Shown in pieces: positions 1 through 45,527 of a DNA stretch of 64,000 bases. Below the pieces are notes generated by a model. That model saw nothing but the letters and a program-made list of their open reading frames with translations. It made no database searches and was not told where the DNA came from. Where the stretch lies: the NCBI RefSeq assembly GCF_018446385.1, contig NC_056002.1:32846636-32910635 (forward strand), read 5' to 3'. Positions within the stretch are counted from its first letter, which is position 1. Each line of letters starts with the position of its first letter. Made by a program: the position numbers and the translations under genes. The stretch comes from Zingiber officinale (lineage: Eukaryota > Streptophyta > Magnoliopsida > Zingiberales > Zingiberaceae).

Positions 1-1041
1 TGATAGACATCAATATTTTTGTTTCATTTTTTTGCTACGTTTTTTAAATTTCTCCTCAAATAATAATTAAACAGTAAGGGGCATTTGATTCGGATTTGTA
101 AATCGAAATAGCAATGAGTTTAATTATAGGGCCAATGGGAAAAGAATAAGAATTTTATTACGAGTGTTTGGTTAAATCGACGTCAGTAATGGGAATTAAA
201 TCAATTTCGAATTTTACATTTGTTTATCACCTCGTTTCGAATTTCGACGTCAGTTTGGTGACATTTTATCATTTGTTTATCACCTCGTTTGATCACTGAG
301 TTTCTGATTTTTAATTTGTTAGTAAAAGAAATCATGGATTTTAATTGGGGCATACGCAGTTTAATTGGATGGATGCGCCATTTAATTAAAAAAATAATTT
401 AAGTATCATTACTTCATATTCAATAATTGATTAATTTATTTATTAAATATGATATTTGGTTAATATATAAGAATAAATAATTATGAAAAAATTTTAAAAA
501 TAATTTTAATGAATGATTTTAGATTAGACTTTAATATCTAATATTCAATTATTATTTATTAATTTAAATTTCTGGCCAATCCTGCTTTCCAAGCTTTCAG
601 CTATACGTGATTTGTTTATTTTTTTAAAAAAACTTATGATTAATATTTAAAAATAAATAATTAAGAAAAATTTTTAAAAATAATTTTAATAAATGATTTT
701 CGATTTGAATTTAATATCTAATATTCAATTATTATTTATTAATTTAAATTTCTAACTAATCCTGCTTTCCAAGCTATAAGCTATACGTGATTTTGTTTAT
801 TTTTTTAAAAAAAAATTCCAAGTTCAAAATTTGATTAATTTTAGCAGGATCGGCCAAAATAAATTTGTTATTTTTATTCTTTTGTCAGCTATTTTTTTTC
901 TTAATACATTTAAAAAAAAAAGATTGGTGACGTTTTATCAGTTGTTTATCACCTCGTTTGTGATTTTTAATTTGTTAGTAAAAAATATCCTGGATTTTAA
1001 TTGGGACATGCGCCAGTTTAATTGCATGAATGCTTAATATT

Positions 1042-1586: not shown

Positions 1587-1687
1587 ACGAACTTACTTGA
1601 ACAGGATCTGTTCTATAGGCTCGTACAACTATATTCTTGAGTGTAAAGGAGACAGGCAACCACTTTGGTTGATGCTTGGGATTCCAA
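1587..1687 (+). pseudogene. U3 snoRNA pseudogene, copy B (internal deletion, 3' truncated)
   Basis: Starts ACGAACTTACTTG and keeps box A. It jumps right after GGTTGATG to CTTGGGATTCCAA, losing about 46 bp of the central region, and then runs into spacer at 1688. Boxes B, C and D are missing. Confidence 0.85.
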
Positions 1688-2024: not shown

Positions 2025-2138
2025 ACGAACTTACTTGAACAGGATCTGTTCTATAGGCTCGTACAACTATATTCTTGAGTGTAAAGGAGACAGGCAACCA
2101 CTTTGGTTGATGACGTAAGATCTCGTGATCAGAGCATG
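2025..2138 (+). pseudogene. U3 snoRNA pseudogene, copy C, interrupted by the CACTA element
   Basis: The 5' half of a U3 gene with box A and box C' reads up to GATCAGAGCATG, where the CACTA element begins. Beyond the element the sequence resumes with the duplicated ATG and ATTAAC (10421-10429), then passes directly to AGCATACAATATTTTTG, the start of the next spacer. The 3' third of the gene with boxes C and D is therefore missing on the far side as well, so this copy was, or later became, truncated independently of the insertion. Confidence 0.85.
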
Positions 2139-2157
2139 CACAACAAGAAAATTATCA

Positions 2158-2490
2158 TTTAGCGACGGACTTAGAGACGGAAATATAATTCCGTCTCTAA
2201 TTAGAGACGGAAATATACTTCCGTCTCTAATTAGAGACGGAAATATACTTCCGTCTCTAATTTCGCTGTTTTAAAATTTTAAATGAGTGAATCTGTAAAA
2301 ATTAGTGACGGATATTTTGATTCCGTCTCTAAATAGAGACGGATATTTTGTTTCCGTCTCTAATTAGGGATGAAATATTTATTCCTTCGCTATTCAAACA
2401 GGGAATTAAGCCCCACCTAGGCGAATTAGAGACGGAACTATTAATTCCGTCTCTAACTAGCGACGGAATTATTAATTCCGTCGCTATGAT
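2158..2490. repeat. Left subterminal repeat array of the CACTA element
   Basis: Repeated AGAGACGGAA or GCGACGGA motifs paired head-to-head with their complements (TTCCGTCTCT, TTCCGTCGCT), separated by short AT spacers and often by the palindrome ATTAGAGACGG/CCGTCTCTAAT. About ten motif pairs can be read. In the En/Spm family such repeats bind the element's accessory protein (TNPA) and bring the ends together; here that role is inferred by position. Confidence 0.85.
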
Positions 2491-2499
2491 TGGGATTTA

Positions 2500-3050
2500 G
2501 GGCACGGGTTCTTCACTTCGGCCTCTCCATTTCCTGCATTTCCTCTCCTCCGGCGCTCGAATAGTTGTCGGCACTGGATTCCGACTCGAGCTCCGTCTCC
2601 TGCATTTCTTTCCGTCTCCCCCGGTGTCCTCTCCTCCGGCGTCCTCTCCTCCGACGCTCGAACAGTTGTCGCTGCCAGACTCCGACTCGGCTCAACGCAG
2701 TCTGTTCGTCATCCTTGCCAACGAGCTTCTTCCTTGCAGAGTGTGCTCCATCGCTGGTAATTTCTCTTTTCTCCTCAATCTCTGTTCCTTTCTTGACTTC
2801 CCCGTCCAGTCATCGAATCTCTGGCTGCTGTTCCAGTAGGAATAGTGGAAGCGCCACGACTTCCCCGTCCTGTCATCGAAGCTCAGCAGCATCCCTTTCA
2901 CAAAGCAGCATCACGTCGCTGGTGATTTCATTTTTCTCCTCAATCTCTCTTTTCCTTTCTTGTTTCTCCTCAAAACATAAAGGGGCTGGATCCCTTGTAC
3001 ATCTTGAGTTAATAATATTATTTGCTTCCCCATTTGTTGAGAGTTGAGTT
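2500..3050 (+). promoter_or_regulatory. GC-richer leader region upstream of the CACTA transposase
   Basis: A C/T-rich block stands out from the AT-rich surroundings and holds two related segments (ATCGCTGGTAATTTCTCTTT near 2750 and a close copy near 2920, each followed by CTCCTCAATCTCT). GGTAATTT near 2756 could be a 5'-UTR donor, and TTTATTAG at 4144-4151, just before the transposase ATG, a matching acceptor. This would make the block a first non-coding exon with its promoter. Open frames across it on both strands are low-complexity Ser/Arg/Glu-rich translations and I do not accept them as genes. The stretch from 3050 to 4150 is AT-rich without recognisable features and would be the intron. 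Confidence 0.4.
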
Positions 3051-4157
3051 GTTTTGGTGGCACAATTTGTTCGTATTGCATCAAGTTGTATGAGTGCCAA
3101 ACTTTTAATTCGGTCTCTGGTACAAATATATGAATACATTCCCTCAAATACATGCTTCATTTTGTTGATTCTGCTGCTTGCAAACTCATGTATAACTTCT
3201 GTTTTATAGAAAAAATCTAATTGTGAAATTCATGTTTCTTTTGAGAAGGTTGTTTGTTGCTTTGAATTTGGCTGCCCTTCTGATTGTCAACCAAAATGAA
3301 AGAAACCTGTGCATTTTAGTAGAGAAGTCCATTTGTAGGTTTATAATTAGTTCTCATCAACCATGCACAAATATCCTAAAATAGTTCCACCTTATCATCG
3401 ATAGTGATTTGTCATGATTTTGACTAATGGAGAAGTTATCCCTCAATAAAAATGGTTAAATACATGTAATTGTCTATTGCTTGTGCAGTCATTCATTTAT
3501 AGATATTCAGTTGTTTGAAAATTAGAACATGATTGTATTTGATTTTCATTCTTGTAAAGTTAGACTGAAATTTAAAAAAAGATAATCAAAATACATATGA
3601 GAATATCATTGACTGAGACATAGATATAGCCTTAACCTAACCAAAGATGATCAAAATGGCCTTGGTATAGGGATATGAATATAGAAAGTCAATGGAAGGA
3701 TTTATATTTCATATTGTAGTAACTTCTAAAGCTTCCAGTAGTTAAAGCCAAACTAATATATTAAAGATAGATTAAAACTAGGCATACAAACAAATCTAAT
3801 AATCCATGGATAAAAATCAAAAGGTAAGGACCAAGAGGAAATATGAAGAAATTTGAATAACTAAGAAAACAAGAAAGAGAAAGGATTGATGATGATTTAG
3901 AGACCAAAAAATAAAACACCATACGACTGCCACCTATTATGATATGATATTTTGATAACACCTATGAAATTGATTTAAAATTATCTAAATGTGTTTTTAT
4001 TTTATTTTTTTTAATTTAAATATCAACTTCTTAATTATATACTTAATATTTTGTATTCATGGTATGGTTTTTGAATATATTGAATCATATGTGTAGTACC
4101 TCTATTATATTACTTATATACTTACTAAGTAATCAATCTTATGTTTATTAGGATACA

Positions 4158-7100
4158 ATGTACTTGAACAAAGATTGGATGTACAATCGATTAGAAAATG
4201 GATTTATCCGAGATGAATATTTTGCTGGAGTTGAAGAGTTTGTGAACTTTGCGAAGAGTCATCCAGAATGTATGGATGGTGTCACGTTACGTTGTCCATG
4301 TAATCATTCCAAATGTAGAAATAAAGCTTTCCATGATGAGGATACTGTCAAAGTACATCTATGTAAAAAAGGATTTGTTCCAAATTACTACAACTGGTAT
4401 TGTCATGGAGAGCCTTATTTGTCTCACCGTATTGGAACTTCGGTTGCTTCTTCATCAGACACAACTCATGTAGGGGAATCATCATCTAATGAGAATGCAA
4501 TGCAATCAATGGTTTATGACGCTATAAACGCTGTTGATCATTCAAATATAGATGATGTACCAACACTTGAAGTTCAGCAAATGTATGACATGTTAAAGGC
4601 TAGTGAAAGAGAAGTGTGGGGAGGGATTCCATCTGGTCATTCCCAATTATCAGCTACTGCAAGATTATTGAACATAAAGGCAGAGCATCATTTTTCAGAA
4701 AGATGTTACGATGACATCTGTCAATTGATGTCTGAGTTACTTCCTACTGATAACATAATGCCTGATAGCTTCTATACTACAAAAAAATTGGTGAGAGGTT
4801 TAGGTTTGCCGGTAGAGAAGATTGATTGTTGCATTAATAACTGCATGATATTTTGGAAAGAAGACAGTGAACTGATTGAATGCAGAATATGTACTCACCC
4901 TCGTTATAAGCATAGTAGTCGAATACCAGGGAAGAAAAATAAAAAGATTGCATGGAAAGTTATGTATTATTTCCCGTTAACTGCTAGACTCCAACGCTTG
5001 TACGCATCTACTGCAACAGCAAGCTACATGAGGTGGCATCATGAGCATGTGCACGAAGAAGGTATAATGTGTCATCCTTGTGATTCGCCTGCTTGGAAAC
5101 ATCTTGATATAACATTTTCCTCATTTGCAATGGAACCACGTAATGTGAGACTTGGACTTTCTGCAGATGGATTTCAACCATTTGGTCAGTCTGGACAGCA
5201 ATATTCATCTTGGCCAGTTATAATAACACCTTACAACTTACCGCCCTGGATGTGTATGAAAGATGAATTTATGTTCCTTACTGTCCTTATTCCAGGGCCA
5301 ACTAATCCAAAAGAAAAGATTGATATTTTCTTGCAACCTCTGATTGCCGAGTTGAATGAATTATGGAATGTAGGGTCACTGACTTATGATGTTGCAAGCA
5401 AAACTAATTTTAGATTGCATGCTGCATTATTATGGACAATTAGTGATTTTCCAGCATACTCAATGTTGTCGGGATGGAGCACGGCTGGTAAATTAGCATG
5501 CCCATACTGCATGACAGAGTCTGATGCATTTTCATTACCCTGCAGTGGGAAGATATCTTGGTTTGATAATCATCGTAAATTTTTACCAGTTGATCACCCT
5601 TTCAGGCGGAATAAGAAAAATTTCATTAGGAATGTTGTAGTCAGAAAACTTCCTCCAACAGTCAAGTCAGGTGAAGAAATCCTTGACCAAATAGACAACT
5701 ATGGTTTTCTACCAGTAGCTGAGACTAATTCTGATGAGATAAATAAATACATTGTTAGGCAGTGCAAGTGCGGTTGGAAGAAAAGGAGTATTTTTTGGGA
5801 GCTACCATATTGGAAGTATCTACTTATTCGACATAATTTAGATGTAATGCACGTTGAGAAAAATTTCTTTGATAATATTTTTAACACTGTGATGAATGTG
5901 CATGGAAAAACTAAAGACACTGCAAAATCACGTGAGGAATTAAAAGAACTAGTTAGCAGACCAGAGTTGCATCAGGATGAAACAACCAATAAATTCCCAA
6001 AGGCTTGTTATACATTGGACAAAGACGGTAAACAAGTTTTATGTAATTGGTTGAAAGAAATTAAATTTCCAGATGGGTATGCCTCGAATATGGCTCGATG
6101 CGTGGATATGAACAGGTTAAAGATGTTTGGAATGAAGAGTCATGACTGTCATGTATTCATGCAAAGACTTATTCCAATAGCTTTTCATGACTTACTTCCT
6201 CAAAATGTTTGGCAAGCACTCACAGAATTGAGTCTATATTTTAGAGATTTGACTGCGAGGTGTATTATGATGGATGATATGCTTCGACTAGAAACAGACA
6301 TTCCTCTTATACTATGTAAGCTTGAACGTATTTTTCCACCCAGTTTTTTTGATTCAATGGAACATCTACCAGTACATTTAGCGTACGAGGCACGAATAGC
6401 TGGTCCTGTCCAGTATAGATGGATGTATCCATTCGAACGGTTTTTAAGGAAATTAAAGAATAATGTTCGTAACAAAGCTAGAGTTGAGGGGTCAATCTGT
6501 AATGCTTATCTGGTTGAAGAAGCATCCTCATTCTGCTCCTATTATTTTTCTGATAATGTAAAAACCAGACATCGCAAGTGTCCTAGAAATTCAGATGATG
6601 CACGACCTATAGACCCATCTATGCTTTCTATTTTCAAGTTTCCTGGCAAGCCAATGGGAGCATCTGTTTCTAGATGGTTAACTCCACAAGAATATCATGC
6701 TGCGAGGACATACATACTCTTAAACTGTGATGAAGTCAAACCCTACATAAAGTAAGTTGACTTCTTGAATCAAACATTTATCAAAAAATAAGTTGTTTCC
6801 CGATAGTGTATTTTTCTTAAAATTACCTTATTTTTCAGCTTGTATGAACAACAACTACAAGTACAAAATCCATCAATTCGTGCAAGTGAGATAGCTGAAA
6901 AGTTGGAGACGGAATTTGCATTATGGTTTCAAATCTATGTAAGTTAGAGCATAATTTTAATTTCTTACATCCATATTAAATTATCAGAGGTTTATTTTAT
7001 ATTCTACTATTGTTATAGGTGTCCGATCGAAGAATATCTAATGTGCAAGATTCCAGGATAATCAATCTTGCATCTGGACCTCTCCGTAAGATAATAGTGT

Positions 7101-7728
7101 ACTCTAGCTACTATGTTAATGGTTTTAAATTTCACGTAACACAACGGGATTCACGCAGACTAACTTTCAATTCCGGTGTTTGTGTGAAAGGATCTATCAA
7201 CAACAATAATTCTGAGTTTGATTATTATGGGAGACTTGAAGAAATCATAGAAGTTGAATATCCGCTTTACCCATCAAAAGATGTGTGTTATTTAAATGTT
7301 CTTGGTATGATCCGACTCCAAGAACAGGTACCAGAATACATCCAAACTACAATTTAGTTGAGGTAAATGCAAACAAAAGCTTCAACAAGTATGAACCTTT
7401 CATTTTTGCGGTACAAGCGGGGCAGGTTTTCTATCTTGAATATCCCACGAAGAGGAGAAGAGCTAGTGAATGGTTAGCAGTTTGCCGAACAAAGCCACGC
7501 TCTACCATAGAAATGCCCAACTCTATCATGAACCAAAACCATGATGCATTTCAAGATGATACAGTGGAGATATATTCAGTAGATTCTCAGATTCAATCAA
7601 CATCTCAATTACTTGTAGATGTTAATGTACCTTATGAGGAAATAGATGATGAAGAAATATCCAGCAGCGAGGAACTTATTGAACTAACAGAGTCTAGTGA
7701 GGAGGATCTACAAAATGTTAACGATTAA
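4158..7728 (+). CDS. TNP2-type (TNPD-like) CACTA transposase, three exons, one frameshift
   Basis: Catalytic transposase of the CACTA element, expected to act in the nucleus on the element's ends. Exons: 4158-6751, 6839-6938 and 7019-7728. The donors (GTAAGT at 6752 and 6939) and acceptors (CAG at 6836-6838, TAG at 7016-7018) keep phase. The first exon encodes about 865 residues: a Transpos_assoc-type N-terminus (about residues 4-78, with DWM and HPEC), the Transposase_21/TNP2 core with ADGFQPF (D337), PYNLPPWMCMK and LDVMHVEKN (D562, E567), and a DUF4218-like region (about 735-795). Exon 3 carries DUF4216 (GFKFHVTQRDS, then LFKCSWYDPT). Between EYP and ALPIKRCVLFKC the frame shifts by one missing base near 7263, so full-length protein is unlikely, although the catalytic part is open. 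The start follows a possible acceptor at 4151. Confidence 0.9.
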
Positions 7729-7886
7729 AATTGTTATATCTTCATGTTAAGCATTGTTAAGTTAAATTTTAGATCTAAATATTCATGGTTATATCACTTG
7801 TCTTACTCTATTAGTCATTATTATTTTTTTGATAAAAAAATAGTGTGCATGCGTATGTGTTATAATGTAATTCTACAGATATAGAC

Positions 7887-9220
7887 ATGTCTGACGCTGG
7901 TGGCCAGATTGTTCTACGGATTATCGGGGGTTGGTAAGTATTAGTGTTATTAGTCTTATTCACTGCATTTATTTTGTTAACATATTTATTTAATTTTATT
8001 TGTTAAATGCAGTTTTACCCCAGATGGTCATAGAGTAGCTGCATACATCACCTCAAAATTTAAAGAGCGATTTAGTCCCGCTGGTACTACATGGAAGCGG
8101 GTAGACCCGGATATGAAGCAATTTTATTACGATGAGTTTTTGGTAAGTCATTTTAATTATCATGATTTTATTATATTTTTATAATAATTTGTGAACATAT
8201 TATTGAAGAAAGATATACTTGGGAGACAGAGCACGAGGCAGAATTTTATGCTACCTGGAACGCAGCTTGTGCCAAACTATACAAAGACATGTTATACAAA
8301 GCAAGACAAAAGGGAATAAAACCATCCTATGTACCTGAGAACATTTGGGATGCATGGAGAGCCATTTGGGCTGCAGACAGATGGCAGGAAAATGCAATGA
8401 TAGCTCGAGCCAATAGAAGGAGTGAGTTGGCTGGCCCTAGTACCGGAGCGACAAAACATACCGCTGGATCCCGATCGATCGTCGAGCATGCCTTAGACTT
8501 GGTGAGTTAGTAATTTTAAAATTCTATAAGAGTTTTGTACCTAGAACATACCACTGGAAATATTTACATCTTTTAATATTCAGGAACATGATCTACAGCG
8601 ACCTCCTACTTGTTGGGAGATATTTACGAAGACACACAAGTCAAAAGATGGCAACTTTATAGATCGTCGATCGTCGGCATTAGACGTAAGAATCTATACT
8701 TGAATATATTTAACTATTAACAATGATTATCTATCATTTCAGTAAATATCTGATAATATTTTTTTTATGCAAATAGGAGGAAATTGCGGCTAGGGTGGCA
8801 CAGGCGTCTCAGCCTAGTTTAGAGGGAGGTGAGGAGCAGATTTTATCTACTGACCAGATAAATGAAATTTATTATGATGTGGTTGGTGGAAGGAAAAAGA
8901 CCTCTACCCTCTATGGTCTTGGGGCCCAGGCGAGAGTTGTATATGATCAGGCGATGACTCCTAGGGCCAGGGGTCGTTCCAGCACATCATCGAGTGCATC
9001 CGAATCATCTGCTAGAGTAGACGTCTTAGAGCAAGAAAACGCAGATTTGAAGACTCGTCTCTCAAACTTGGAGGCAGATTTTCGAGCAGAGCGACAATCC
9101 CGATTGGATCTTGAGAAAATTGGGCGAGATATGCAAGCCTTCTTGGATCAAATGAGTGCAACGCCACATCGTTTTGCCTCTCAGGAGACTCAAGACCCTA
9201 ATAATCCCCCTGATCCGTAG
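7887..9220 (+). CDS. Transposase_24-type (TNPA-like) CACTA accessory protein, five exons
   Basis: Second gene of the CACTA element, of the plant PttA/En/Spm (Transposase_24) family, whose members are thought to bind the subterminal repeats. Proposed exons: 7887-7933, 8013-8142, about 8209-8501, 8584-8685 and 8777-9220. Family-like stretches are KQFYYDEFL, NIWDAWRAIW, RANRRSELAG followed by an HTAGSRSIVEHA block, PPTCWEIFTKTHKSKDG and STLYGLGAQA. The last exon ends in a coiled-coil-like segment (DVLEQENADLKTRLSNLEAD) and a Pro-rich tail. Exons 1-2, 3-4 and 4-5 join in phase with good GT/AG signals. The exon 2-3 junction leaves the frame off by two bases with the only visible acceptor (AAG at 8206-8208), so either that acceptor is wrong or an indel is present. 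ATG at 7887 is the first in frame. Confidence 0.75.
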
Positions 9221-9847
9221 ATTGCCATAGGTATCTTGATGTTTAACTTTTTAATTTTTTTTTGTTCACTAATGAAACTATGTCTAACATTGTATTATAT
9301 CTTTTCAGGAACATTGATATCTATACAACACCATCATCGTATATCCAAACTAGCACTCAAGTATGTAAAATAAATTCATAATATTAAATTTAATATGTTA
9401 CACATAATTGTGTACTAGTTTATTCTTTGTTTTATTATTAATCTATCGTATTAACATTTTTGCAGGATTGATTACTACTCGCTAGCTTAGGATTGGATTT
9501 TCTTTGCTAGAAGGTGTTGTATTATGTTTTTTAATTTCAGATGTTGTAGTACTATACAATCAGGTGTTTATGGTTAGAGATGTTTGGATAATTATCTTTG
9601 TTTTTTAATTGGATATTTAGTTTTAGTTTTGTGTTTGTATTATTATTATTGGAGATGTTGTAAGAATGTAGTGTGCTTGGATTGGATACTTGGTTTGATA
9701 TTTGCATTCATATATTATTTTGTATTGTCATTGTCTAATTGTGTATGTATTGTGTTATTTGGAAACCATTGTATGTGATGGTCTAGATTGATATGAAATG
9801 TAAACAAGGATAATTGTAGAAATCAAATTGTGCTGCTAAAATTTCCA
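9221..9847. other. CACTA 3' non-coding region
   Basis: T-rich sequence between the second gene and the right subterminal array. A 64-residue open frame at 9584-9778 is hydrophobic and low in complexity, with no family resemblance. Possible small 3'-UTR introns occur (GTATGT near 9361, TTGCAG near 9461), but nothing firm can be called. Confidence 0.5.
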
Positions 9848-10400
9848 GGTATTAGAGACGGAATATTAAAATTCCGTCTCTAATTAGAGACGGAAATTTA
9901 ATATTCCGTCTCTAATTTCACTTTGGAATTTACTGTTATAACGATACCTTACGACGGAATTATAATTTTCCGTCGCTGAGTGACCTGAATTTGTCTGAAA
10001 TGACGATAACTTGCGACGGAACATAACAAATCCGTCTCTAATTAGAGACGGAATATTAAACATCCGTCTCTAATTAGAGACGGAATTTTAATATTCCGTC
10101 TCTAATTAGAGACGGACCATTAAACTTCCGTCTCTAATTAGAGACGGAATTTTAATATTCCGTCTCTAATTAGAGACAGAAACTAGAGATCGGATTCTAT
10201 GGTTAGCGACTGATTATTAAATTCTCGTCGCTATATTTTAGAGACGGAATATATATTCCGTCTCTAATTAGCGACGGAATTTAAAAATCCGTCTCTAAAT
10301 ACGGTCAGCGACAAAACTCGTGTCGACGCAGTTATTCAGTCGCTAATCAGTCGCTAATCTAGTTTAGCGACGGAATAGAGACGGAAAATTCCGTCTCTAA
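9848..10400. repeat. Right subterminal repeat array of the CACTA element
   Basis: More than a dozen AGAGACGGAA or GCGACGGAA motifs and complements, many arranged as GAGACGGAATATT/AATATTCCGTCTC palindromes joined by CTAATTAG. It is longer than the left array (about 550 bp against 330 bp), as is usual in this superfamily. Some motifs read CGACGG instead of GAGACGG, forming two interleaved subtypes. Confidence 0.85.
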
Positions 10401-11251
10401 TGCTGATTTTTTTTGTAGTGATGATTAACAGCATACAATATTTTTGTTTTATTTTTTTTTGCGTCCGTTTTTATAAGCTTACATTTTTTAAATTTCTCCT
10501 CAAATAATAATTAAACAGTAAGGGGCATTTGATTCGGATTCGTAAATCGGAATAGCAATGAGTTTAATTAATTGGTTAATAGGAATAAGAACAAGAATTA
10601 TATTACTAGAGTTTGGTATAAATCGACGTCACTAATGGGAATTAAATAAATTTCGAATTTTACCCTTAGTCGTTAACGTATTAAAAAAATAATTTAAGTA
10701 TCTTCACTTCATATTCAATAATTGATTGATTTATTTATTAAATACGATATTTGATTAATATTTAACAATAAATAATTCTGAAAATTTTTAACAAATAATT
10801 TTAATGAAAGATTTTAGATTCGAATTTAATGTCGAATATTCAATTAGTATTTATTAATTTAAATTTCTAACTAATCCTGTTTTCTAACCTATCAGCTATA
10901 TGTGATTTTATTTATTTTTTTTACATTTTTTTTTCCAAGTTCTAAAATTGAATAATTTAAGCAGTCCGATAAAATTTTTTTATTAATCATGCGACTAAAT
11001 TAAGAGGCGCGCACATGAATAGAAAGCCAATATTTTTATACCCTATTTAAACATATAAATTTGCTATTTTTAGTCATTTGTATGTCATTTTTTTTGGATA
11101 TATTTTCAAAAAAAAATAGTTTGGTGACGTTTTATCATTTGTTTATCGCCTCGTTTGATCACTGAGTTTGTGATATTTAATTTGTTAGTAAAAGAAATCT
11201 TGTATTTTAATTGGGCCATGTGCCAGTTTAATTGGATGGAAGCTTAGTATT

Positions 11252-11297
11252 AGTCCCACATCCGTTATTTTTGAAGTAGATGAAGCTTTTATTATTG
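11252..11297 (+). promoter_or_regulatory. U3 copy 1 promoter: USE and TATA-like box
   Basis: AGTCCCACATCCG at 11252-11264 fits the plant snRNA upstream sequence element RTCCCACATCG. The TATA-like TTTTATTATT begins at 11287, 22 bp after the USE. In plants about 23-24 bp between these elements specifies RNA polymerase III and about ten more specifies Pol II, so this is a Pol III arrangement, as known for plant U3. The gene starts 66 bp after the start of the USE. Confidence 0.85.
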
Positions 11298-11317
11298 CAG
11301 CAGAAGCAAAGTCAAGC

Positions 11318-11524
11318 ACGACCTTACTTGAACAGGATCTGTTCTATAGGATCGTACAACTGTATCCCTGAGTGTAAAGGAGACAGGCAACCACTCTGGT
11401 TGATGACGTAAGATCTCGAGATCAGAGCATGATTAACGGTTCTGGTCCCTTGGGATTCCAAGCTGTAGAGGAGTGTTCCTAGCAGATCAATGATCTACTG
11501 GGGTGGTCATGAGATTGTCTGACA
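11318..11524 (+). ncRNA. U3 snoRNA, copy 1
   Basis: U3 is a box C/D small nucleolar RNA that base-pairs with the pre-rRNA 5' ETS and 18S region in the SSU processome. The copy starts ACGACCTTACTTGAACAG and has box A GGATCTGTTCTATAGG (11335-11350), box C' GGTTGATGA (11398-11406), a box B-like AGAGGAGTGTT (about 11467-11477), box C CAATGATCT (11488-11496) and box D GTCTGA (11517-11522). The 5' ACGA can pair with TCGT at 11352-11355 to close the 5' hairpin. It has private changes: GGATCGTAC instead of GGCTCGTAC, ATCCCTGAG, and GGTCATGAG. All boxes are intact. Confidence 0.93.
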
Positions 11525-11535
11525 GACACACAATA

Positions 11536-11555
11536 TTTTTGTTTTATTTTTTTTT
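11536..11555 (+). terminator. Pol III terminator after U3 copy 1
   Basis: T5 at 11536-11540, about 12 bases after the end of the RNA, followed by T4 and T9 runs. Runs of four or more T stop plant Pol III, which fits the Pol III promoter spacing. Confidence 0.7.
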
Positions 11556-12356
11556 ACGTCCGTTTTTATAACCTTACGTTTTTTAAATTTCTCCTCAAAT
11601 AATAATTAAACAGTAAGGGGCATTTGATTCGGATTCATAAATCGGAATAGCAATGAGTTTAATTAATTGGTCAATAGGAATAAGAACAAGATTTATATTA
11701 CTAGAGTTTGGTTTAAATCGACATCACTAATGGGAATTAAATAAATTTTGAATTTTACCCTTAGTCGTTAACGTATTAAAAAAATAATTTAAGTATCTTC
11801 ACTTCATATTCAATAATTGATTGATTTATTTATTAAATACGATATTTGATTAATATTTAACAATAAATAATTCTGAAAAAATTTTAAAAATAATTTTAAT
11901 GAAAGATTTTAGATTCGAATTTAATGTCGAATATTCAATTAGTATTTATTAATTTAAATTTCTAACTAATCCTGTTTTCTAACCTATCAGCTATATGTGA
12001 TTTTATTTATTGTTTTTACATTTTTTTTTCAAGTTCTAAAATTGAATAATTTACGCAGTCCGATAAAATTTTTTTATTAATCATGCGACTAAATTAAGAG
12101 GCGCGCACATGAATAGAAGGCCAAAATTTTTATACCCTATTTAATCATATAAATTTGCTATTTTTATTCTTTTGTCTGCTATTTTTTTTTGGATATATTT
12201 TCAAAAATTTTCAAAAAAAAATAGTTTGGTGACGTTTTATCAATTGTTTATCGCCTCGTTTGATCACTGAGTATGTGATTTTTAATTTGTTAGTAAAAGA
12301 AATCTTGGATTTTAATTGGGGCATGTGCCAGTTTAACTGGATGGAAGCTTAGTATT

Positions 12357-12402
12357 AGTCCCACATCCGTTATTTTTGATGTAGATGAAGCTTTTATTAT
12401 TG
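12357..12402 (+). promoter_or_regulatory. U3 copy 2 promoter
   Basis: USE at 12357-12369 and CTTTTATTATTG at 12391-12402, with the same 66-bp spacing to the gene as copy 1. Confidence 0.83.
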
Positions 12403-12422
12403 CAGCAGAAGCAAAGTCAAGC

Positions 12423-12629
12423 ACGACCTTACTTGAACAGGATCTGTTCTATAGGCTCGTACAACTGTATCCTTGAGTGTAAAGGAGACAGGCAACCACT
12501 CTGGTTGATGACGTAAGATCTCGAGATCAGAGCATGATTAACGGTTCTGGTCCCTTGGGATTCCAAGCTGTAGAGGAGTGTTCCTAGCAGATCAATGTTC
12601 TACTGGGGTGGTCTTGAGATTGTCTGACA
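12423..12629 (+). ncRNA. U3 snoRNA, copy 2 (altered box C)
   Basis: 207 bp, nearly identical to copy 3. Boxes A, C', B and D are intact, but box C reads CAATGTTCT instead of CAATGATCT. Box C/D form the kink-turn bound by the 15.5K/Snu13 protein, so this base change may weaken snoRNP assembly. The promoter and the T-rich stop (12641-12660) are normal, so it may be transcribed yet unstable. Confidence 0.88.
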
Positions 12630-12640
12630 GACATACAATA

Positions 12641-12660
12641 TTTTTGTTTTATTTTTTTTT
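12641..12660 (+). terminator. Pol III terminator after U3 copy 2
   Basis: T5 followed by T4 and a longer T run, 12 bases past the RNA end. Confidence 0.65.
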
Positions 12661-13461
12661 ACGTCCGTTTTTATAATCTTACGTTTTTTAAATTTCTCCT
12701 CGAATAATAATTAAACAGTAAGGGGCATTTGATTCGGATTCATAAATCGGAATAGCAATGAGTTTAATTAATTGGTCAATAGGAATAAGAACAAGATTTA
12801 TATTACTAGAGTTTGGTTTAAATCGACATCACTAATGGGAATTAAATAAATTTTGAATTTTACCCTTAGTCGTTAACGTATTAAAAAAATAATTTAAGTA
12901 TCTTCACTTCATATTCAATAATTGATTGATTTATTTATTAAATACGATATTTGATTAATATTTAACAATAAATAATTCTGAAAAAATTTTAAAAATAATT
13001 TTAATGAAAGATTTTAGATTCGAATTTAATGTCGAATATTCAATTAGTATTTATTAATTTAAATTTCTAACTAATCCTGTTTTCTAACCTATCAGCTATA
13101 TGTGATTTTATTTATTGTTTTTAAATTTTTTTTTCAAGTTCTAAAATTGAATAATTTACGCAGTCCGATAAAAAATTTTTATTAATCATGCGACTAAATT
13201 AAGAGGCGCGCACATGAATAGAAGGCCATTATTTTTATACCCTATTTAATCATATAAATTTGCTATTTTTATTCTTTTTTCTGCTATTTTTTTTTGGATA
13301 TATTTTCAAAAATTTTCAAAAAAAAATAGTTTGGTGACGTTTTATCAATTGTTTATCGCCTCGTTTGATCACTGAGTATGTGATTTTTAATTTGTTAGTA
13401 AAAGAAATCTTGGATTTTAATTGGGGCATGTGCCAGTTTAACTGGATGGAATCTTAGTATT

Positions 13462-13507
13462 AGTCCCACATCCGTTATTTTTGATGTAGGTGAAGCTATT
13501 ATTATTG
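13462..13507 (+). promoter_or_regulatory. U3 copy 3 promoter
   Basis: USE at 13462-13474. The TATA-like box reads CTATTATTATTG (13496-13507), closer to a TATA consensus than the CTTTTATTATTG of its neighbours. Confidence 0.83.
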
Positions 13508-13527
13508 CAGCAGAAGCAAAGTCAAGC

Positions 13528-13734
13528 ACGACCTTACTTGAACAGGATCTGTTCTATAGGCTCGTACAACTGTATCCTTGAGTGTAAAGGAGACAGGCAA
13601 CCACTCTGGTTGATGACGTAAGATCTCGAGATCAGAGCATGATTAACGGTTCTGGTCCCTTGGGATTCCAAGCTGTAGAGGAGTGTTCCTAGCAGATCAA
13701 TGATCTACTGGGGTGGTCTTGAGATTGTCTGACA
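13528..13734 (+). ncRNA. U3 snoRNA, copy 3
   Basis: 207 bp with every box in the array consensus: box A, GGTTGATGA, the AGAGGAGTGTT segment, CAATGATCT and GTCTGA. Together with its promoter this is one of the best candidates for a working gene in the window. Confidence 0.93.
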
Positions 13735-13745
13735 GACATACAATA

Positions 13746-13765
13746 TTTTTGTTTTATTTTTTTTT
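13746..13765 (+). terminator. Pol III terminator after U3 copy 3
   Basis: T5, T4 and T9 runs directly downstream of the RNA. Confidence 0.65.
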
Positions 13766-14560
13766 GCGTTCCGTTTTTAAAAGCTTACGTTTTTTGAATT
13801 TCTCCTCAAATAATAATTAAACAGTAAGGGGCATTTGATTCGGATTCGTAAATCGGAATAGCAATGAGTTTAATTAATTGGTCAATAGGAATAAGAACAA
13901 GAATTATATTACTAGAGTTTGGTTTAAATCGACGTCACTAATGGGAATTAAATAAATTTCAAATTTTACCCTTAGTCGTTAACGTATTAAAAAAAATAAT
14001 TTAAATATCTTCACTTCATATTCAATTATTGATTGATTTATTTATTAAATACGATATTTGATTAATATTTAACAATAAATAATTCTGAAAAGATTTTAAA
14101 AATAATTTTAATGAAAGATTTTAGATTCGTATTTAATGTCGAATATTCAATTAGTATTTATTAATTTAAATTTCTTACTAATCCTGTTTTCTAACCTATC
14201 AGCTATATGTGATTATATTTATTTATTTTACATTTTTTTTTCCATGTTCTAAAATTTAATAATTTAAGCAGTCCGATAAATTTTTTTTATTAATCATGCG
14301 ACTAAATTAAGAGGCGCGCACATGAATAGAAGGCCAATATTTTTATACCCTATTTAAACATATAAACTTGCTATTTTTATTCTTTAGTCTGCTATTTTTT
14401 TTTTAGATATATTTTCAAAAAAAAATAGTTTGGTGACGTTTTATCATTTGTTTATCGCGTCGTTTGATCACTGAGTTTGTGATTTTTAATTTGTTACTAA
14501 AAGAAATCTTGGATTTTAATTGGGGCATGTGCCAGTTTAATTGGATGGAAGCTTAGTATT

Positions 14561-14606
14561 AGTCCCACATCCGTTATTTTTGAAGTAGATGAAGCTTTTA
14601 TTATTG
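14561..14606 (+). promoter_or_regulatory. U3 copy 4 promoter
   Basis: USE at 14561-14573 and CTTTTATTATTG at 14595-14606. The interval before the gene has GCAGCATAAGC where others have GCAGCAGAAGC. Confidence 0.83.
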
Positions 14607-14626
14607 CAGCATAAGCAAAGTCAAGC

Positions 14627-14833
14627 ACGACCTTACTTGAACAGGATCTGTTCTATAGGCTCGTACAACAGTATCCTTGAGTGTAAAGGAGACAGGCAAC
14701 CACTCTGGTTGATGACATAAGATCTCGAGATCAGAGCATGATTAACGGTTCTGGTCCCTTGGGATTCCAAGCTGTAGAGGAGTGTTCCTAGCAGATCAAT
14801 GATCTACTGGGGTGGTCTTGAGATTGTCTGACA
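14627..14833 (+). ncRNA. U3 snoRNA, copy 4
   Basis: 207 bp with all boxes present. It shares the variants ACAACAGTATCC and TGATGACATAAG with copy 6, and its spacer also groups with that of copy 6 (TCGCGTCG, TTACTAAAAG, ATTCTTTAGTCTGC), so the two arose from one ancestral subtype. Confidence 0.92.
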
Positions 14834-14844
14834 GACATACAATA

Positions 14845-14866
14845 TTTTTGTTTTATTTTTTTTTTG
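14845..14866 (+). terminator. Pol III terminator after U3 copy 4
   Basis: T5, T4 and a T9 or longer run downstream of the RNA. Confidence 0.65.
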
Positions 14867-15645
14867 CGTCCGTTTTTATAAGCTTACGTTTTTTAAATTT
14901 CTCCTCACATAATAATTAAACAGTAAGGGCATTTGATTCGGATTCGTAAATCGGAATAGCAATGAGTTTAATTAATTGGTCAATAGGAATAAGAACAAGA
15001 ATTATATTACTAGAGTTTGGTTTAAATCGACGTCACTAATGGGAATTAAATAAATTTCGAATTTTACCCTTAGTCGTTAACATATTAAAAAAATAATTTA
15101 AGTATCTTTACTTCATATTCAATAATTGATTGATTTATTTATTAAATACGATATTTGATTAATATTTAACAATAAATAATTCTGAAAAAAATTTAAAAAT
15201 AATTTTAATGAAAGATTTTAGATTCGAATTTAATGTCGAATATTCAATTAGTATTTATTATTTTAAATTTCTAACTAATCCTGTTTTCTAACCTATCAGC
15301 TATATGTGATTTTATTTATTTTTTTTCCAAGTTCTAAAATTGAATAATTTAAGCTGTCCGATAAAATTTTTTTATTAATCATGCGACTAAATTAAGAGGC
15401 GCGCACATGAATAGAAGGCCAATATTTTTATACCCTATTTAAACATATAAATTTGCTATTTTTTTTCATTTGTCTGCTATTTTTTTTGGATATATTTTCA
15501 AAAAACAAAATAGGTTGGTGACGTTTTATCATTTGTTTATCGCCTCGTTTGATCACTGAGTTTGTGATTTTTAATTTGTTAGTAAAGGAAATCTTGGATT
15601 TTAATTGGGGCACGTGCCAGTTTAATTGGATGGAAGCTTAGTATT

Positions 15646-15691
15646 AGTCCCACATCCGTTATTTTTGAAGTAGATGAAGCTTTTATTATTG
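15646..15691 (+). promoter_or_regulatory. U3 copy 5 promoter
   Basis: USE at 15646-15658, CTTTTATTATTG at 15680-15691, spacing as in the other copies. Confidence 0.83.
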
Positions 15692-15711
15692 CAGCAGAAG
15701 CAAAGTCAAGC

Positions 15712-15918
15712 ACGACCTTACTTGAACAGGATCTGTTCTATAGGCTCGTACAACTGTATCCTTGAGTGTAAAGGAGACAGGCAACCACTCTGGTTGATGA
15801 CGTAAGATCTCGAGATCAGAGCATGATTAACGGTTCTGGTCCCTTGGGATTCCAAACTGTAGAGGAATGTTCCTAGCAGATCAATGATCTACTGGGGTGG
15901 TCTTGAGATTGTCTGACA
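15712..15918 (+). ncRNA. U3 snoRNA, copy 5
   Basis: 207 bp with all boxes present. Private changes lie around box B (CCAAACTGTAGAGGAATGTTCC) and just outside the 3' end (GTCTGACATACAT). Otherwise it equals the array consensus. Confidence 0.92.
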
Positions 15919-15929
15919 TACATACAATA

Positions 15930-15949
15930 TTTTTGTTTTATTTTATTTT
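15930..15949 (+). terminator. Pol III terminator after U3 copy 5
   Basis: T5 followed by three T4 runs separated by single purines. The long T9 of the other units is broken up here, but T5 and T4 should still suffice. Confidence 0.6.
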
Positions 15950-16742
15950 ACGTTCCGTTTTTATAAGCTTTCATTTTTTGAATTTCTCCTCAAATAATAA
16001 TTAAACAGTAAGGGGCATTTGATTCGGATTCGTAAATCGGAATAGCAATGAGTTTAAGTAATTGGTCAATAGGAATAAGAACAAGAATTATATTACTAGA
16101 GTTTGGTTTAAATCGACGTCACTAATGGGAATTAAATAAATTTCGAATTTTACCCTTAGTCGTTAACGTATTAAAAAAATAATTTAAATATCTTCACTTC
16201 ATATTCAATAATTGATTGATTTATTTATTAAATACGATATTTGATTAATATTTAACAATAAATAATTCTGAAAAGATTTTAAAAATAATTTTAATGAAAG
16301 ATTTTAGATTCGTATTTAATGTCGAATATTCAATTAGTATTTATTAATTTAAATTTCTAACTAATCCTGTTTTCTAACCTATCAGCTATATGTGATTTTA
16401 TTTATTTATTTTACATTTTTTTTTCCATGTTCTAAAATTTAATAATTTAAGCAGTCCGATAAATTTTTTTTATTAATCATGCGACTAAATTAAGAGGCGC
16501 GCACATGAATAGAAGGCCAATATTTTTATACCCTATTTAGACATATAAACTTGCTATTTTTATTCTTTAGTCTGCTATTTTTTTTTAGATATATTTTCAA
16601 AAAAAAATAGTTTGGTGACGTTTTATCATTTGTTTATCGCGTCGTTTGATCACTGAGTTTGTGATTTTTAATTTGTTACTAAAAGAAATCTTGGATTTTA
16701 ATTGGGGCATGTGCCAGTTTAATTGGATGGAAGCTTAGTATT

Positions 16743-16788
16743 AGTCCCACATCCGTTATTTTTGAAGTAGATGAAGCTTTTATTATTG
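16743..16788 (+). promoter_or_regulatory. U3 copy 6 promoter
   Basis: USE at 16743-16755 and CTTTTATTATTG at 16777-16788. Confidence 0.83.
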
Positions 16789-16808
16789 CAGCAGAAGCAA
16801 AGTCAAGC

Positions 16809-17015
16809 ACGACCTTACTTGAACAGGATCTGTTCTATAGGCTCGTACAACAGTATCCTTGAGTGTAAAGGAGACAGGCAACCACTCTGGTTGATGACAT
16901 AAGATCTCGAGATTAGAGCATGATTAACGGTTCTGGTCCCTTGGGATTCCAAGCTCTAGAGGAGTGTTCCTAGCAGATCAATGATCTACTGGGGTGGTCT
17001 TGAGATTGTCTGACA
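16809..17015 (+). ncRNA. U3 snoRNA, copy 6
   Basis: 207 bp with all boxes present. It carries the copy-4 subtype changes (ACAACAGTATCC, GACATAAG) plus GAGATTAGAGC and CCAAGCTCTAGAGG near box B. Confidence 0.92.
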
Positions 17016-17026
17016 GACATACAATA

Positions 17027-17048
17027 TTTTTGTTTTATTTTTTTTTTG
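17027..17048 (+). terminator. Pol III terminator after U3 copy 6
   Basis: T5, T4 and a T10-like run downstream of the RNA. Confidence 0.65.
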
Positions 17049-17839
17049 CGTCTGTTTTTAAAAGCTTACGTTTTTTAAATTTCTCCTCACATAATAATTA
17101 AACAGTAAGGGGCATTTGATTCGGATTCGTAAATCGGAATAGCAATGAGTTTAATTAATTGGTCAATAGGAATAAGAACAAGAATTATATTACTAGAGTT
17201 TGGTTTAAATCGACGTCACTAATGGGAATTAAATAAATTTCGAATTTTACCCTTAGTCGTTAACATATTAAAAAAATAATTTAAGTATCTTCACTTCATA
17301 TTCAATAATTGATTGATTTATTTATTAAATATGATATTTGATTAATATTTAACAATATATAATTCCGAAAAAATTTTAAAAATAATTTTAATGAAAGATT
17401 TTAGATTCGAATTTAATGTCGAATATTCAATTAGTATTTATTAATTTAAATTTCTAACTAATCCTGTTTTCTAACCTATCAGCTATATGTGATTTTATTT
17501 ATTTTTTTTACATTTTTTTTCCAAGTTCTAAAATTGAATAATTTAAGCAGTCCGATAAAATTTTTTTATTAATCATGCGACTAAATTAAGAGGCGCGCAC
17601 ATGAATAGAAGGCCAATATTTTTATACCCTATTTAAACATATAAATTTGCTATTTTTTATCTTTTGTCTGCTATTTTTTTTGGATATATTTTCAAAAAAA
17701 AAAATAGTTTGGTGACGTTTTATCATTTGTTTATCGCCTCGTTTGATCACTGAGTTTGTGATTTTTAATTTGATACTAAAAGAAATCTTGGATTTTAATT
17801 GGGGCATGTGCCAGTTTAATTGGATGGAAGCTTAGTATT

Positions 17840-17885
17840 AGTCCCACATCTGTTATTTTTGAAGTAGATAAAGCTTTTATTATTG
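17840..17885 (+). promoter_or_regulatory. U3 copy 7 promoter (USE variant)
   Basis: The USE reads AGTCCCACATCTG (17840-17852), with T in place of C near its end. TATA-like CTTTTATTATTG at 17874-17885. Confidence 0.75.
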
Positions 17886-17905
17886 CAGCAGAAGCAAAGT
17901 CAAGC

Positions 17906-18107
17906 ACGACCTTACTTGAACAGGATCTGTTCTATAGGCTCGTACAATTGTATCCTTGAGTGTAAAGGAGACAGGCAACCACTCTGGTTGATGACGTAAG
18001 ATCTCGAGATTAGAGCATGATTAACGGTTCTGGTCCCTTGGGATTCCAAGCTGTAGAGGAGTGTTCCTAGCAGATCAATGATCTACTGGGGTGGTCTTGA
18101 GATTGAC
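17906..18107 (+). pseudogene. U3 snoRNA, copy 7, box D deleted
   Basis: Boxes A, C', B and C match the array, but the 3' end reads GAGATTGACAGAC where the others have GAGATTGTCTGACAGAC. A 4-bp loss removed box D. Without box D a box C/D RNA is not processed or protected, so this copy is probably dead. The USE variant upstream supports relaxed constraint. Confidence 0.85.
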
Positions 18108-18540
18108 AGACATACAATATTTTTGTTTTATTTTTTTTTTGCGTCCGTTTTTATAAGCTTACGTTTTTTAAATTTCTCCTCAAATAATAATTAAACAGTA
18201 AGGGGCATTTGATTCGGATTCGTAAATCGGAATAGCAATGAGTTTAATTAATTGGTCAATAGGAATAAGAACAAGAATTATATTACTAGAGTTTGGTTTA
18301 AATCAACGTCACTAATGGGAATTAAATAAATTTCGAATTTTACCTTTAGTCGTTAACGTATTAAAAAAATAATTTAAGTATCTTCACTTCATATTCAATA
18401 ATTGATTGATTTATTTATTAAATATGATATTTGATTAATATTTAACAATAAATAATTCTGAAAATTTTTTACAAATAATTTTAATGAAAGATTTTAGATT
18501 CGAATTTAATGTTGAATATTCAATTATTATTAATAAAATA

Positions 18541-18733: not shown

Positions 18734-19906
18734 TGATCCTTTTTGAGAAACTGACAAAACGGAAAGTTGGGGAGAGAACCCAATGTTGATGAAAAAGAGT
18801 ACTTGGAGACTTCCAATCCGAGAAAATCAAAGTGGATCCAGAAGAAGAAAATTACAGAATACCTCTTTGTGCAAAGACCCATGGGCGGAAGGAAGAATCC
18901 CCGGAAGAATACCAGGATTTGGAGCTGTAACAACCTCCTGCGCACAAGAGACCAGCCAATACTATTGTCAGCGATCTAAGATCGGGGAGGGAATCCCTAG
19001 CTAGGCCCTCCGACGCTCAAGTTAGTGATTTCTCTCGGTGGGGAAGAAGGAAGAAGATGAACAATAACTCTAAATTAGGATTTGCAATAGATGACTATGT
19101 GTGTTGTGAGCGTGTGCATACTTGGCCAATGAAGAGGATTCCTCTTTTTATACCACTTCATCTAACCTCCATAGTCATGAAGTAGACCTCGGTTTGTTAG
19201 AGTTTGTTATGAGATGACATAAGCCATGTACTTGCATAAAATAATTTTTAAGGAATCTTTCTTATACCCCAGATGTACCTTTTTTGTCGCTTAATACCTG
19301 CAGAAGAGTCTAGAAACATTCTTCCCACCAAATTAATCAACCTGTTATACAATCACATGCTGCAGATATTTTCATAAGCTATTTATAAATATTCCCGAAA
19401 TATTTGTTCCGCCCTATCTTATAAATTATATCGAGGTATATTTATCGCTTATGCCTGCCCGCCCTATTTTTGCTATGTTATATACAACCCGATATTATAC
19501 TATGATTTGTATCGGGCGGAATTGAACCTACGTTATGTTCGGGCGGATTATTATTACTATTCAACCTATGTCCTATTCGTCCAATAATATACTATAAATT
19601 ATGTACGACTTTGTTTCTTTATATACCCAAGCGATCATATACATCCGACTCATACTAGTCTATATCCAGATGTACTAATTCAGACAATCCTGACCATCTA
19701 TCTTAAAGTGCAAACTCGATCGACATTGACCAATCTTTCTTAAAGTATTATCCCGACCGATATTGACCTATTTTTTTAAGGTATTATCCCGACCGATATT
19801 GACCTATTTTCTCGAGCATATTACCCCGGCCGATATCCATGCTTGTTTAATCCTGCTATCTCTTTTCTCCTTCCCACCGAGGACCTATTAAACCTAACCT
19901 ATATCA
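18734..19906 (-). repeat. 3' LTR of the outer Gypsy element
   Basis: 1173 bp, homologous along its whole length to 59923-61153. It contains several degenerate copies of a short motif built around TATCGGCCGGGATAATA (19690-19830 on the minus strand), which is the seed of the minisatellite seen in the related solo LTR at 51056-52979. Confidence 0.9.
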
Positions 19907-26335: not shown

Positions 26336-26380
26336 GTAGGGTGCTATACTTCAAGATATTTTTCTATCAATTATATTTTT

Positions 26381-27490
26381 GATAGTTTAAAGTCTCCATC
26401 TCCTCTCGACAAGGCTCGTCTGGGTTACTTTAAGAGATTTCTCGATCGACTGTATTTTTGATAGTTTAAAATCTCCAGTTCCTCTCTAGAAGGCCTGCCC
26501 GGGTTACTTCAAGAGATTTCTCGATCGACTGTATTTTTGATAGTTTAAAGTCTCCGGTTTCTCTCGAGAAGGCCGGTCCGGGTTACTTCAAGAGATTTCT
26601 TGATCGACTGTGTTTTTGATAGTTTAAAGTCTCTGGTTCCTCTTGAGAAGGCCCGTCCTAGTTACTTCAAGAGATTTCTCGATCGACTGTGTTTTTGATA
26701 GTTTAAAGTCTCTGGTTCCTCTCGAGAAGGCCTGTCCGTGTTACTTCAAGAGATTTTCTGATCGACTGTGTTTTAGATAGTTTAAAGTCTCTGGTTCCCC
26801 TCGAGAAGCCCCGTCTGAGTTACTTCAAGAGATTTCCCAATCGACTGTGTTTTTGATAGTTTAAAGTCTCCGGTTCCTCTCGAGAAGGCCCATCCGGGTT
26901 ACTTCAAGAGATTTCCTGATCAATTGTGTTTTTGATAGTTGAAAGTCTCTGGTTCATCTCGAGAAGGTCCGTCCGGGTTACTTCAAGAGATTTCTCGATC
27001 GGCTGTGTTTTTGATAGTTTAAAGTCTCCGATTCCTCTCGAGAAGGCCTGCCCGGGTTACTTCAAAAGATTTCCCGATCGACTGTGTTTTTGATAACTTA
27101 AAGTCTCCGGTTCCTCTCGAGAAGGCCCGTCTGGGTTACTTCAAGAGATTTCTCGATCGATTGTGTTTTTGATAGTTTAAAGTCTCTGGTTCCTCTCGAG
27201 AAGGCCCGCCCGGGTTACTTCAAGAGATTTCTTGATCGACTATGTTTTAGATAGTTTAAAGTCTCCGGTTCCTGTCGAGAAGGCCCGTTCGGGTTACTTC
27301 AAGAGATTTCCCGATCGACTGTGTTTTTGATAGTTTAAAGTCTCTGGTTCCTCTCGAGAAGGCCCTTCTGGGTTACTTTAAGAGATTTTTCGATCGACTG
27401 TGTTTTTGATAGTTTAAAGTCTCTGGTTCCTCTCGAGAAGGCTCGTCCGGGTTACTTCAAGAGATTTCCCGATCGATTGTGTTTTTGATT
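26381..27490. repeat. 79-bp minisatellite, about 14 copies
   Basis: Copies begin GATAGTTTAAAGTCTC at 26381, 26460, 26539, 26618 and so on, spaced exactly 79 bp. Each holds CCTCTCGAGAAGG, GGGTTACTTCAAGAGATTT and CGATCGACTGTGTTTTT. Copies differ by a few bases. It sits just after the end of the integrase region of the outer Gypsy element, a usual place for tandem repeats in Tat-type elements. Confidence 0.92.
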
Positions 27491-43711: not shown

Positions 43712-43716
43712 TCAAC

Positions 43717-45464: not shown

Positions 45465-45527
45465 AGTGGTATCAGAGCGAGGCGCGCTCTTCGTCGGATT
45501 AACACCCGTGGGAGCACAAGCTAGAGA

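What the first reader, a model, noticed from the sequence alone, without database searches (positions are those of the whole stretch)
10436..18540. Tandem array of U3 snoRNA genes with Pol III-type promoters
Seven consecutive 1.1-kb units each carry a 207-bp U3 gene, identified by box A, C', B-like, C and D, with a USE, TATA-like box and T-rich stop. Five copies look intact. Plant U3 genes are usually described as dispersed or in small groups; a regular array of full transcription units with about 890 bp of spacer, organised like 5S rDNA, is to my knowledge unusual. The U3 identity rests on the recognised sequence; the unusual nature of the array is my inference.
Basis: partly seen in the sequence, partly recalled or inferred. 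Interest (0 to 1): 0.88.

Follow-up and report, generated by a model that had tools for sequence, protein, structure and literature searches.

The report
Decaying tandem array of plant U3 genes
A plant chromosome carries a head-to-tail row of at least ten U3 genes (an RNA that helps make ribosomes), seven of them full length with their own promoters and the others truncated or split by a jumping gene; it looks like an ordinary duplicated gene cluster rather than a new kind of system.

Summary
Seven full-length Plant_U3 matches (151.8-169.3 bits, cut-off 80) lie head to tail at 11318-18116, starts 1085-1105 bp apart. Each has a USE-like element, an AT box at about -31 and a T5 run just downstream, at RNA polymerase III-type spacing. 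Five keep all boxes; 11318 has a box A change and 17906 a damaged box D. The array is larger than reported: truncated copies start at 1107, 1587 and 2025, and a U3 3' tip opens the window. An 8.3-kb CACTA transposon (2139-10420) sits inside the copy at 2025. Shared variants point to one- and two-unit duplications. Constraint on the gene is at most weak: 12 of 209 gene columns vary against 77 of 870 others, p = 0.16; a count over copies, which counts shared variants repeatedly, gives p = 0.018. Best reading: a functional Pol III U3 gene amplified by unequal exchange, its copies now largely drifting; expression is untested. A tomato U3 locus with "tandemly repeated pseudogenes" (1990) is a precedent that I saw by title only.

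The parts
1..850 (+). left-most array spacer, rearranged and diverged, beginning with the 3' tip of a U3 gene (about 1-30)
   Evidence: sequence; 1-217 aligns from U3 gene position 203 onward at 83%; pieces at 81-92% identity
1107..1250 (+). truncated U3 copy L1 (3' half deleted), with USE-like element and AT box upstream
   Evidence: Plant_U3 87.1 bits, above cut-off
1587..1687 (+). truncated U3 copy L2; USE-like element has two mismatches (TTCCCACATCC)
   Evidence: Plant_U3 74.5 bits, below the cut-off of 80; lies in a 438-bp direct duplication 99.8% identical
2025..2138 (+). U3 copy L3, 5' part, split by the CACTA insertion
   Evidence: Plant_U3 83.2 bits; 95.6% identical to copy 13528 over 114 bp
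2139..10420 (+). CACTA (En/Spm-type) DNA transposon inserted in U3 copy L3: ends CACAACAAGAAAA and, reverse complement, CACTACAAAAAAA; subterminal GAGACGGA-type repeats; tnp2 transposase frame 4152-6755; target duplication ATG at 2136-2138 and 10421-10423
   Evidence: Pfam PF02992 1.4e-79, PF13960, PF13963; PF13952 in the frame at 7258; ends and motif counts
10421..10433 (+). residue of the 3' side of U3 copy L3; most of its 3' half is missing
   Evidence: sequence
10434..11528 (+). array unit 1 (spacer + U3 gene 11318-11528; box A C34A)
11529..12633 (+). array unit 2 (U3 gene 12423-12633, boxes intact)
12634..13738 (+). array unit 3 (U3 gene 13528-13738, best score; gene identical to the array consensus)
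13739..14837 (+). array unit 4 (U3 gene 14627-14837, boxes intact)
14838..15922 (+). array unit 5 (U3 gene 15712-15922; CTGA of box D intact, one change just after it)
15923..17019 (+). array unit 6 (U3 gene 16809-17019; box cores intact, changes just before box B and box C, pair-breaking changes at 44 and 148)
17020..18116 (+). array unit 7 (U3 gene from 17906; 4-nt deletion removes CTGA of box D; last USE base T)
18117..18537 (+). partial spacer after unit 7; array homology ends here
   Evidence: blastn 95.8% to the unit, ending at 18537
13463..13473 (+). example of the USE-like element (GTCCCACATCC, -65 to -55) of the gene at 13528; AT box starts at about 13497; same layout in all seven full units

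Best explanation
A plant U3 snoRNA gene with a gene-external Pol III promoter was amplified head to tail, spacer included, by unequal crossing-over or a similar DNA-level duplication. The right-hand units are young and still alike; copies on the left are older and truncated. A CACTA transposon jumped into one copy and split the array. The founder gene almost certainly worked as U3 (made by Pol III, assembled as a box C/D particle, paired with pre-rRNA to guide 18S release). Probably some of the five box-complete copies are still transcribed and add to the U3 pool, but no single copy appears essential. Shown here: U3 identity, unit structure, promoter layout, shared-variant pattern, transposon split, at most weak constraint. 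Inferred: the mechanism of amplification, transcription, contribution to U3 supply.
For: Seven full and three partial Plant_U3 matches in one orientation. Promoter, gene and spacer are repeated together, which retroposition would not give. Units 2 and 3 share 20 variants, 4 and 6 share 13, 5 and 7 share 6; these pairs differ at 13, 14 and 25 sites against 30-43 for the other 18 of 21 pairs. Two 438-bp blocks in the left part are 99.8% identical. No T4 run in the first 206 bp of any of the 7 genes and a T5 run just after each. 61 of 66 Rfam pairs form in copy 13528 and 59-60 in the other six, the count for 17906 being approximate because of its deletion.
Against: No transcript data, and no genome or plant relative to compare. 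Against the 'drifting' part: genes carry fewer changes from the consensus than far spacer, 15 of 1477 against 109 of 5680 sites, p = 0.018, though shared variants are counted more than once. Against 'still working': 9 of 12 gene substitution sites are paired positions (132 of 211 positions are paired; P = 0.28 for nine or more), 6 of them break a standard pair and none is compensated. The two-unit duplication is only modestly supported: 2.9% of ordered quadruples do as well or better, itself included. Left pieces do not form a smooth outward gradient. Crossing-over was not told apart from gene conversion or circular-DNA reintegration.
Confidence: 0.72

Rival explanations
1. A working, dosage-type U3 locus organised like 5S rDNA: most full copies are transcribed and the array is kept for high U3 output. 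(Overlaps with the best explanation, which shares its history and differs on how many copies matter.)
For: USE, AT box, T5 run and all boxes in 5 of 7 full copies. Genes carry fewer changes than far spacer by a count over copies (p = 0.018); one search lists 11 gap runs in the spacer and none in promoter or gene, the one gene deletion (unit 7) showing.
Against: By variable columns the difference is not significant (12 of 209 against 77 of 870, p = 0.16). 2 of 7 full copies have box damage and three more are truncated. Pair-breaking changes are uncompensated.
Confidence: 0.3
2. A satellite-like pseudogene array: the copies are silent by-products of tandem duplication beside a functional U3 gene elsewhere, as the tomato paper's title suggests for that locus.
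For: At most weak constraint, uncompensated pair breaks, truncated neighbours, surroundings rich in transposable elements. Title of Kiss and Solymosy 1990 in a reference list.
Against: Promoter elements and five box-complete genes are preserved; the two basal elements of plant Pol III snRNA genes are USE and TATA box (PMC9845283 passages).
Confidence: 0.3
3. An assembly artefact.
For: Tandem repeats are error-prone in assembly (general knowledge).
Against: The seven units differ from each other at 13-43 sites and by distinct indels, and the transposon has matching target duplications inside one copy.
Confidence: 0.03

Closest known systems
Plant U3 snoRNA genes (Rfam RF01847; USE + TATA, Pol III type 3 promoter)
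   Same: full-length covariance match, boxes, external promoter with USE and AT box at Pol III spacing
   Different: arranged in a regular 1.1-kb tandem array. For Arabidopsis the passages that I saw speak of U3.1 on chromosome 1 and two other U3-like RNAs (PMC7464842)
Tomato U3 RNA gene locus with tandemly repeated pseudogenes (Kiss and Solymosy 1990)
   Same: plant U3 sequences in tandem at one locus, by its title
   Different: cannot be compared in detail because the paper is not held; here seven full units carry promoters, five with box-complete genes
Tandem snRNA gene arrays such as human RNU1 and RNU2
   Different: those are Pol II spliceosomal snRNA genes (recalled); total copy number and activity here are unknown
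Euglena gracilis multi-copy U3 genes
   Same: U3 multiplied, at least 14 genes (PMC2784804, passages and one section)
   Different: frequently linked to U5 genes; tandem U3 was looked for by PCR there and not found
5S rDNA
   Same: Pol III genes in regular tandem units (general knowledge)
   Different: 5S genes have an internal promoter (PMC9845283 passages); high copy number is not shown here

Membership tests
Plant U3 snoRNA (RF01847) | covariance model match above the curated cut-off, full length | tested here: met
   7 full matches of 151.8-169.3 bits, cut-off 80
Plant U3 snoRNA (RF01847) | boxes GAC/A, C', B, C and D (box names recalled) | tested here: met
   box cores present in 5 of 7 full copies; one box A change (11318), box D lost in 17906
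Plant U3 snoRNA (RF01847) | transcribed and found in the nucleolus | not testable with these tools
   no RNA data, no genome held
Plant Pol III type 3 promoter | USE (RTCCCACATCG) and TATA-like box one helical turn closer than in Pol II snRNA genes | tested here: met
   USE matches 10 of 11 bases in all 7 full copies; 23-nt gap to the AT box in all 7; definition
Plant Pol III type 3 promoter | monocot-specific element RGCCCR (monocots only) | tested here: not met
   absent within 130 bp upstream in 9 of 10 copies; one reverse-strand match at 11318. Fits a non-monocot, but the species is unknown
5S-rDNA-like functional array | regular head-to-tail full transcription units | tested here: met
5S-rDNA-like functional array | gene clearly more conserved than spacer | tested here: inconclusive
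   columns p = 0.16, copy count p = 0.018 with repeated shared variants; left pieces p = 0.28
Tomato-type tandem U3 pseudogene locus | as described in the 1990 paper | not testable with these tools
   title only; paper not held
CACTA transposon | CACTA-type ends, 3-bp target duplication, tnp2 transposase | tested here: met
   the left end reads CACAA, the right CACTA

The most novel reading that the evidence does not exclude
A plant keeps its main U3 supply in a 5S-rDNA-like, Pol III-transcribed tandem array whose copy number sets U3 dosage and whose copies make sequence-distinct U3 RNAs.
Probability: 0.15. Interest if true: 0.5.

Novelty: new member of a known kind. Interest (0 to 1): 0.3.

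Why it matters
Copy-specific variants in a Pol III snoRNA array would let U3 dosage, homogenisation and pseudogene decay be followed copy by copy. If transcribed, it would be a plant counterpart of the tandem snRNA arrays of animals. The split, partly truncated structure also shows how such arrays come and go. As it stands it is a well-defined but ordinary tandem gene cluster.

Tried and rejected
Retroposed U3 pseudogenes: rejected, since promoter and spacer are repeated with the gene. Selection on the gene: tested on the right units and on the left pieces. My first figure, 14 of 211 gene columns, p = 0.34, counted two columns that come from the unaligned 4-nt deletion of unit 7; without them it is 12 of 209, p = 0.16. 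Compensatory changes: none among the 9 substituted paired positions. A direct repeat inside the unit that might drive amplification: none of 16 bp or more in unit 3; three inverted pairs, not pursued. Relatives elsewhere: one exact 32-letter pattern in viral contigs and in genome contigs gave 0 and 0, as expected for collections of viruses, bacteria and archaea. Own genome not held. Literature: ten searches; among the titles and abstract openings listed I saw no plant array of promoter-bearing U3 units. The library is open-licence only and one search showed 25 of 9,251, so this is weak evidence of absence.

In one search the labels 'B' and 'C(+)' are off: the stretch labelled C(+) holds box B (GAGCATGATTAAC), and box C is the TAGAGGA stretch at gene position 149, checked. 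Box names are recalled. The consensus used was built from the right units, which favours them in the comparison with the left pieces; those percentages are substitutions only, gaps left out.
Full report
What is there. A covariance scan of the whole window gives nine matches at or above the curated cut-offs, all of them Plant_U3 (RF01847) (seven lower-scoring overlapping matches of the same clan were left out by the tool). Seven are full-length, at 11318, 12423, 13528, 14627, 15712, 16809 and 17906, with 151.8-169.3 bits. Two, at 1107 and 2025, are truncated (87.1 and 83.2 bits). With a laxer threshold a third truncated copy appears at 1587 (74.5 bits, below the cut-off of 80). One unit used as a blastn query finds seven full units between 10434 and 18116, a partial spacer to 18537, and diverged pieces from 36 to 2138. 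The first bases of the window align from U3 gene position 203 onward, so the array runs on to the left outside the window.

The split. Between 2138 and 10421 lies an 8.3-kb element with CACTA-type ends (CACAACAAGAAAA on the left, CACTACAAAAAAA as the reverse complement of the right) and the bases ATG on both sides. Of 40 matches in the window to four short GAGACGGA-type motifs, 39 lie in it. It carries an 867-codon open frame matching tnp2 transposase (PF02992, 1.4e-79), Transpos_assoc and DUF4218, and a second frame matching DUF4216. The bases before and after it read GAGC-ATG and ATG-ATTAAC, the same stretch as GAGCATGATTAAC in the full copies. The transposon therefore jumped into a U3 gene. 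The far side of that gene has also lost most of its 3' half.

Unit anatomy. By the array consensus the unit has about 0.9 kb of AT-rich spacer (25% GC) and a 46% GC gene. Upstream of each full gene sits GTCCCACATCC, or GTCCCACATCT in the last unit, at -65 to -55, with an AT box starting near -31 and a 23-nt gap between them. As a control, RTCCCACATCG with up to one mismatch occurs 8 times in the window on both strands: at the seven full copies and at the truncated copy at 1107. Shuffles give 1.08 on average and at most 5. The copies at 1587 and 2025 have a second mismatch. [quoted passage not shown] Here the centres are about 33 bp, three turns, apart, which fits Pol III. No T4 run occurs in the first 206 bp of the seven genes, and a T5 run follows each. 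The monocot element RGCCCR is absent within 130 bp in 9 of 10 copies tested.

Which copies look intact. Five of seven keep all box cores (12423, 13528, 14627, 15712, 16809). 15712 has one change just after CTGA of box D, and 16809 one just before box B and one just before box C. 11318 has C34A in box A. 17906 has lost CTGA of box D in a 4-nt deletion. Of the Rfam pairs, copy 13528 forms 61 of 66 and the others 59-60. Apart from that deletion the genes vary at 12 sites. Nine are paired positions (43, 44, 51, 106, 145, 148, 176, 192, 208), of which six break a standard pair, three keep one, and none is compensated; 34, 91 and 156 are unpaired. Nine of 12 is no avoidance of pairs, given 132 of 211 paired positions (P = 0.28 for at least nine).

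History. Pairwise substitutions among the seven units are 30-43 for 18 of 21 pairs but 13 (units 2 and 3), 14 (4 and 6) and 25 (5 and 7). The same pairs share 20, 13 and 6 variants found in no other unit. This fits a one-unit duplication (2 and 3) and a two-unit duplication (4-5 to 6-7). The latter is only modestly supported, since 2.9% of ordered quadruples do as well or better. In the left part two 438-bp blocks are 99.8% identical, a further recent duplication. Spacer substitutions from the array consensus are 5.6-13.3% in the four left-most pieces, 9.7% in copy L1, 1.9% in L2 and L3 next to the transposon, and 1.4-2.3% in the right units. So the outer left part is older, in a step rather than a smooth gradient: the outermost piece, at 7.1%, is not the most diverged. 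The consensus was made from the right units, which favours them. Stronger homogenisation of inner units is an inference.

Is the gene under selection here? At most weakly. In the right units 12 of 209 gene columns vary against 77 of 870 others (columns with gaps left out), Fisher p = 0.16; the uncorrected count was 14 of 211, p = 0.34. Counted over copies, genes differ from the consensus at 15 of 1477 sites and far spacer at 109 of 5680, p = 0.018, but this counts variants shared by sister units more than once. In the left pieces, counting the 438-bp duplicate once, genes differ at 13 of 232 sites and far spacer at 93 of 1196, p = 0.28. Power is low, so moderate constraint is not excluded.

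Comparison with what is known. Plant U3 genes are Pol III genes (passage and reference titles in PMC2784804). For Arabidopsis the passages seen speak of U3.1 and two other U3-like RNAs (PMC7464842). Tandem small-RNA arrays are known for human RNU1 and RNU2 (PMC4802181 passage). Kiss and Solymosy 1990 describe a tomato U3 locus with 'tandemly repeated pseudogenes'; I saw the title only, in the reference list of PMC6239184, and the paper is not held. In the listings of ten searches of an open-licence library I saw no paper describing promoter-bearing U3 units in a regular plant array.

Verdict. I rate it a new member of a known kind, interest 0.3. The mended selection figures did not change my odds: they move slightly towards constraint, but the stronger one rests on non-independent counts.

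Noticed in passing
18734-19906 and 59923-61153: Direct repeat pair (92% over 324 bp and 95% over 866 bp) that looks like the two LTRs of one large element with others nested inside; it begins about 200 bp after the array ends.
   Followed up: partly
43717-45464 and 48743-50461: LTR-like pair, 89% identical over 1796 bp, with a frame at 45525-47000 that by eye has zinc-knuckle-like motifs between them; a copia-type reverse transcriptase (RVT_2) lies next to it at 42973-43734.
   Followed up: partly
28046-30424 and 34994-37402: Direct repeat pair 97% identical over 2.4 kb, probably LTRs of a young element.
   Followed up: no
40741-42508 and 56415-58170: Direct repeat pair 95% identical over 1.8 kb, probably LTRs.
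   Followed up: no
26347-27489: Array of a 79-bp unit, 14.5 copies, 88% matches.
   Followed up: no
51116-52165: Array of a 136-bp unit with internal 39-bp repeats.
   Followed up: no
1238-2112: Two 438-bp blocks 99.8% identical, holding truncated U3 sequence and its promoter: a much more recent duplication than its surroundings.
   Followed up: yes
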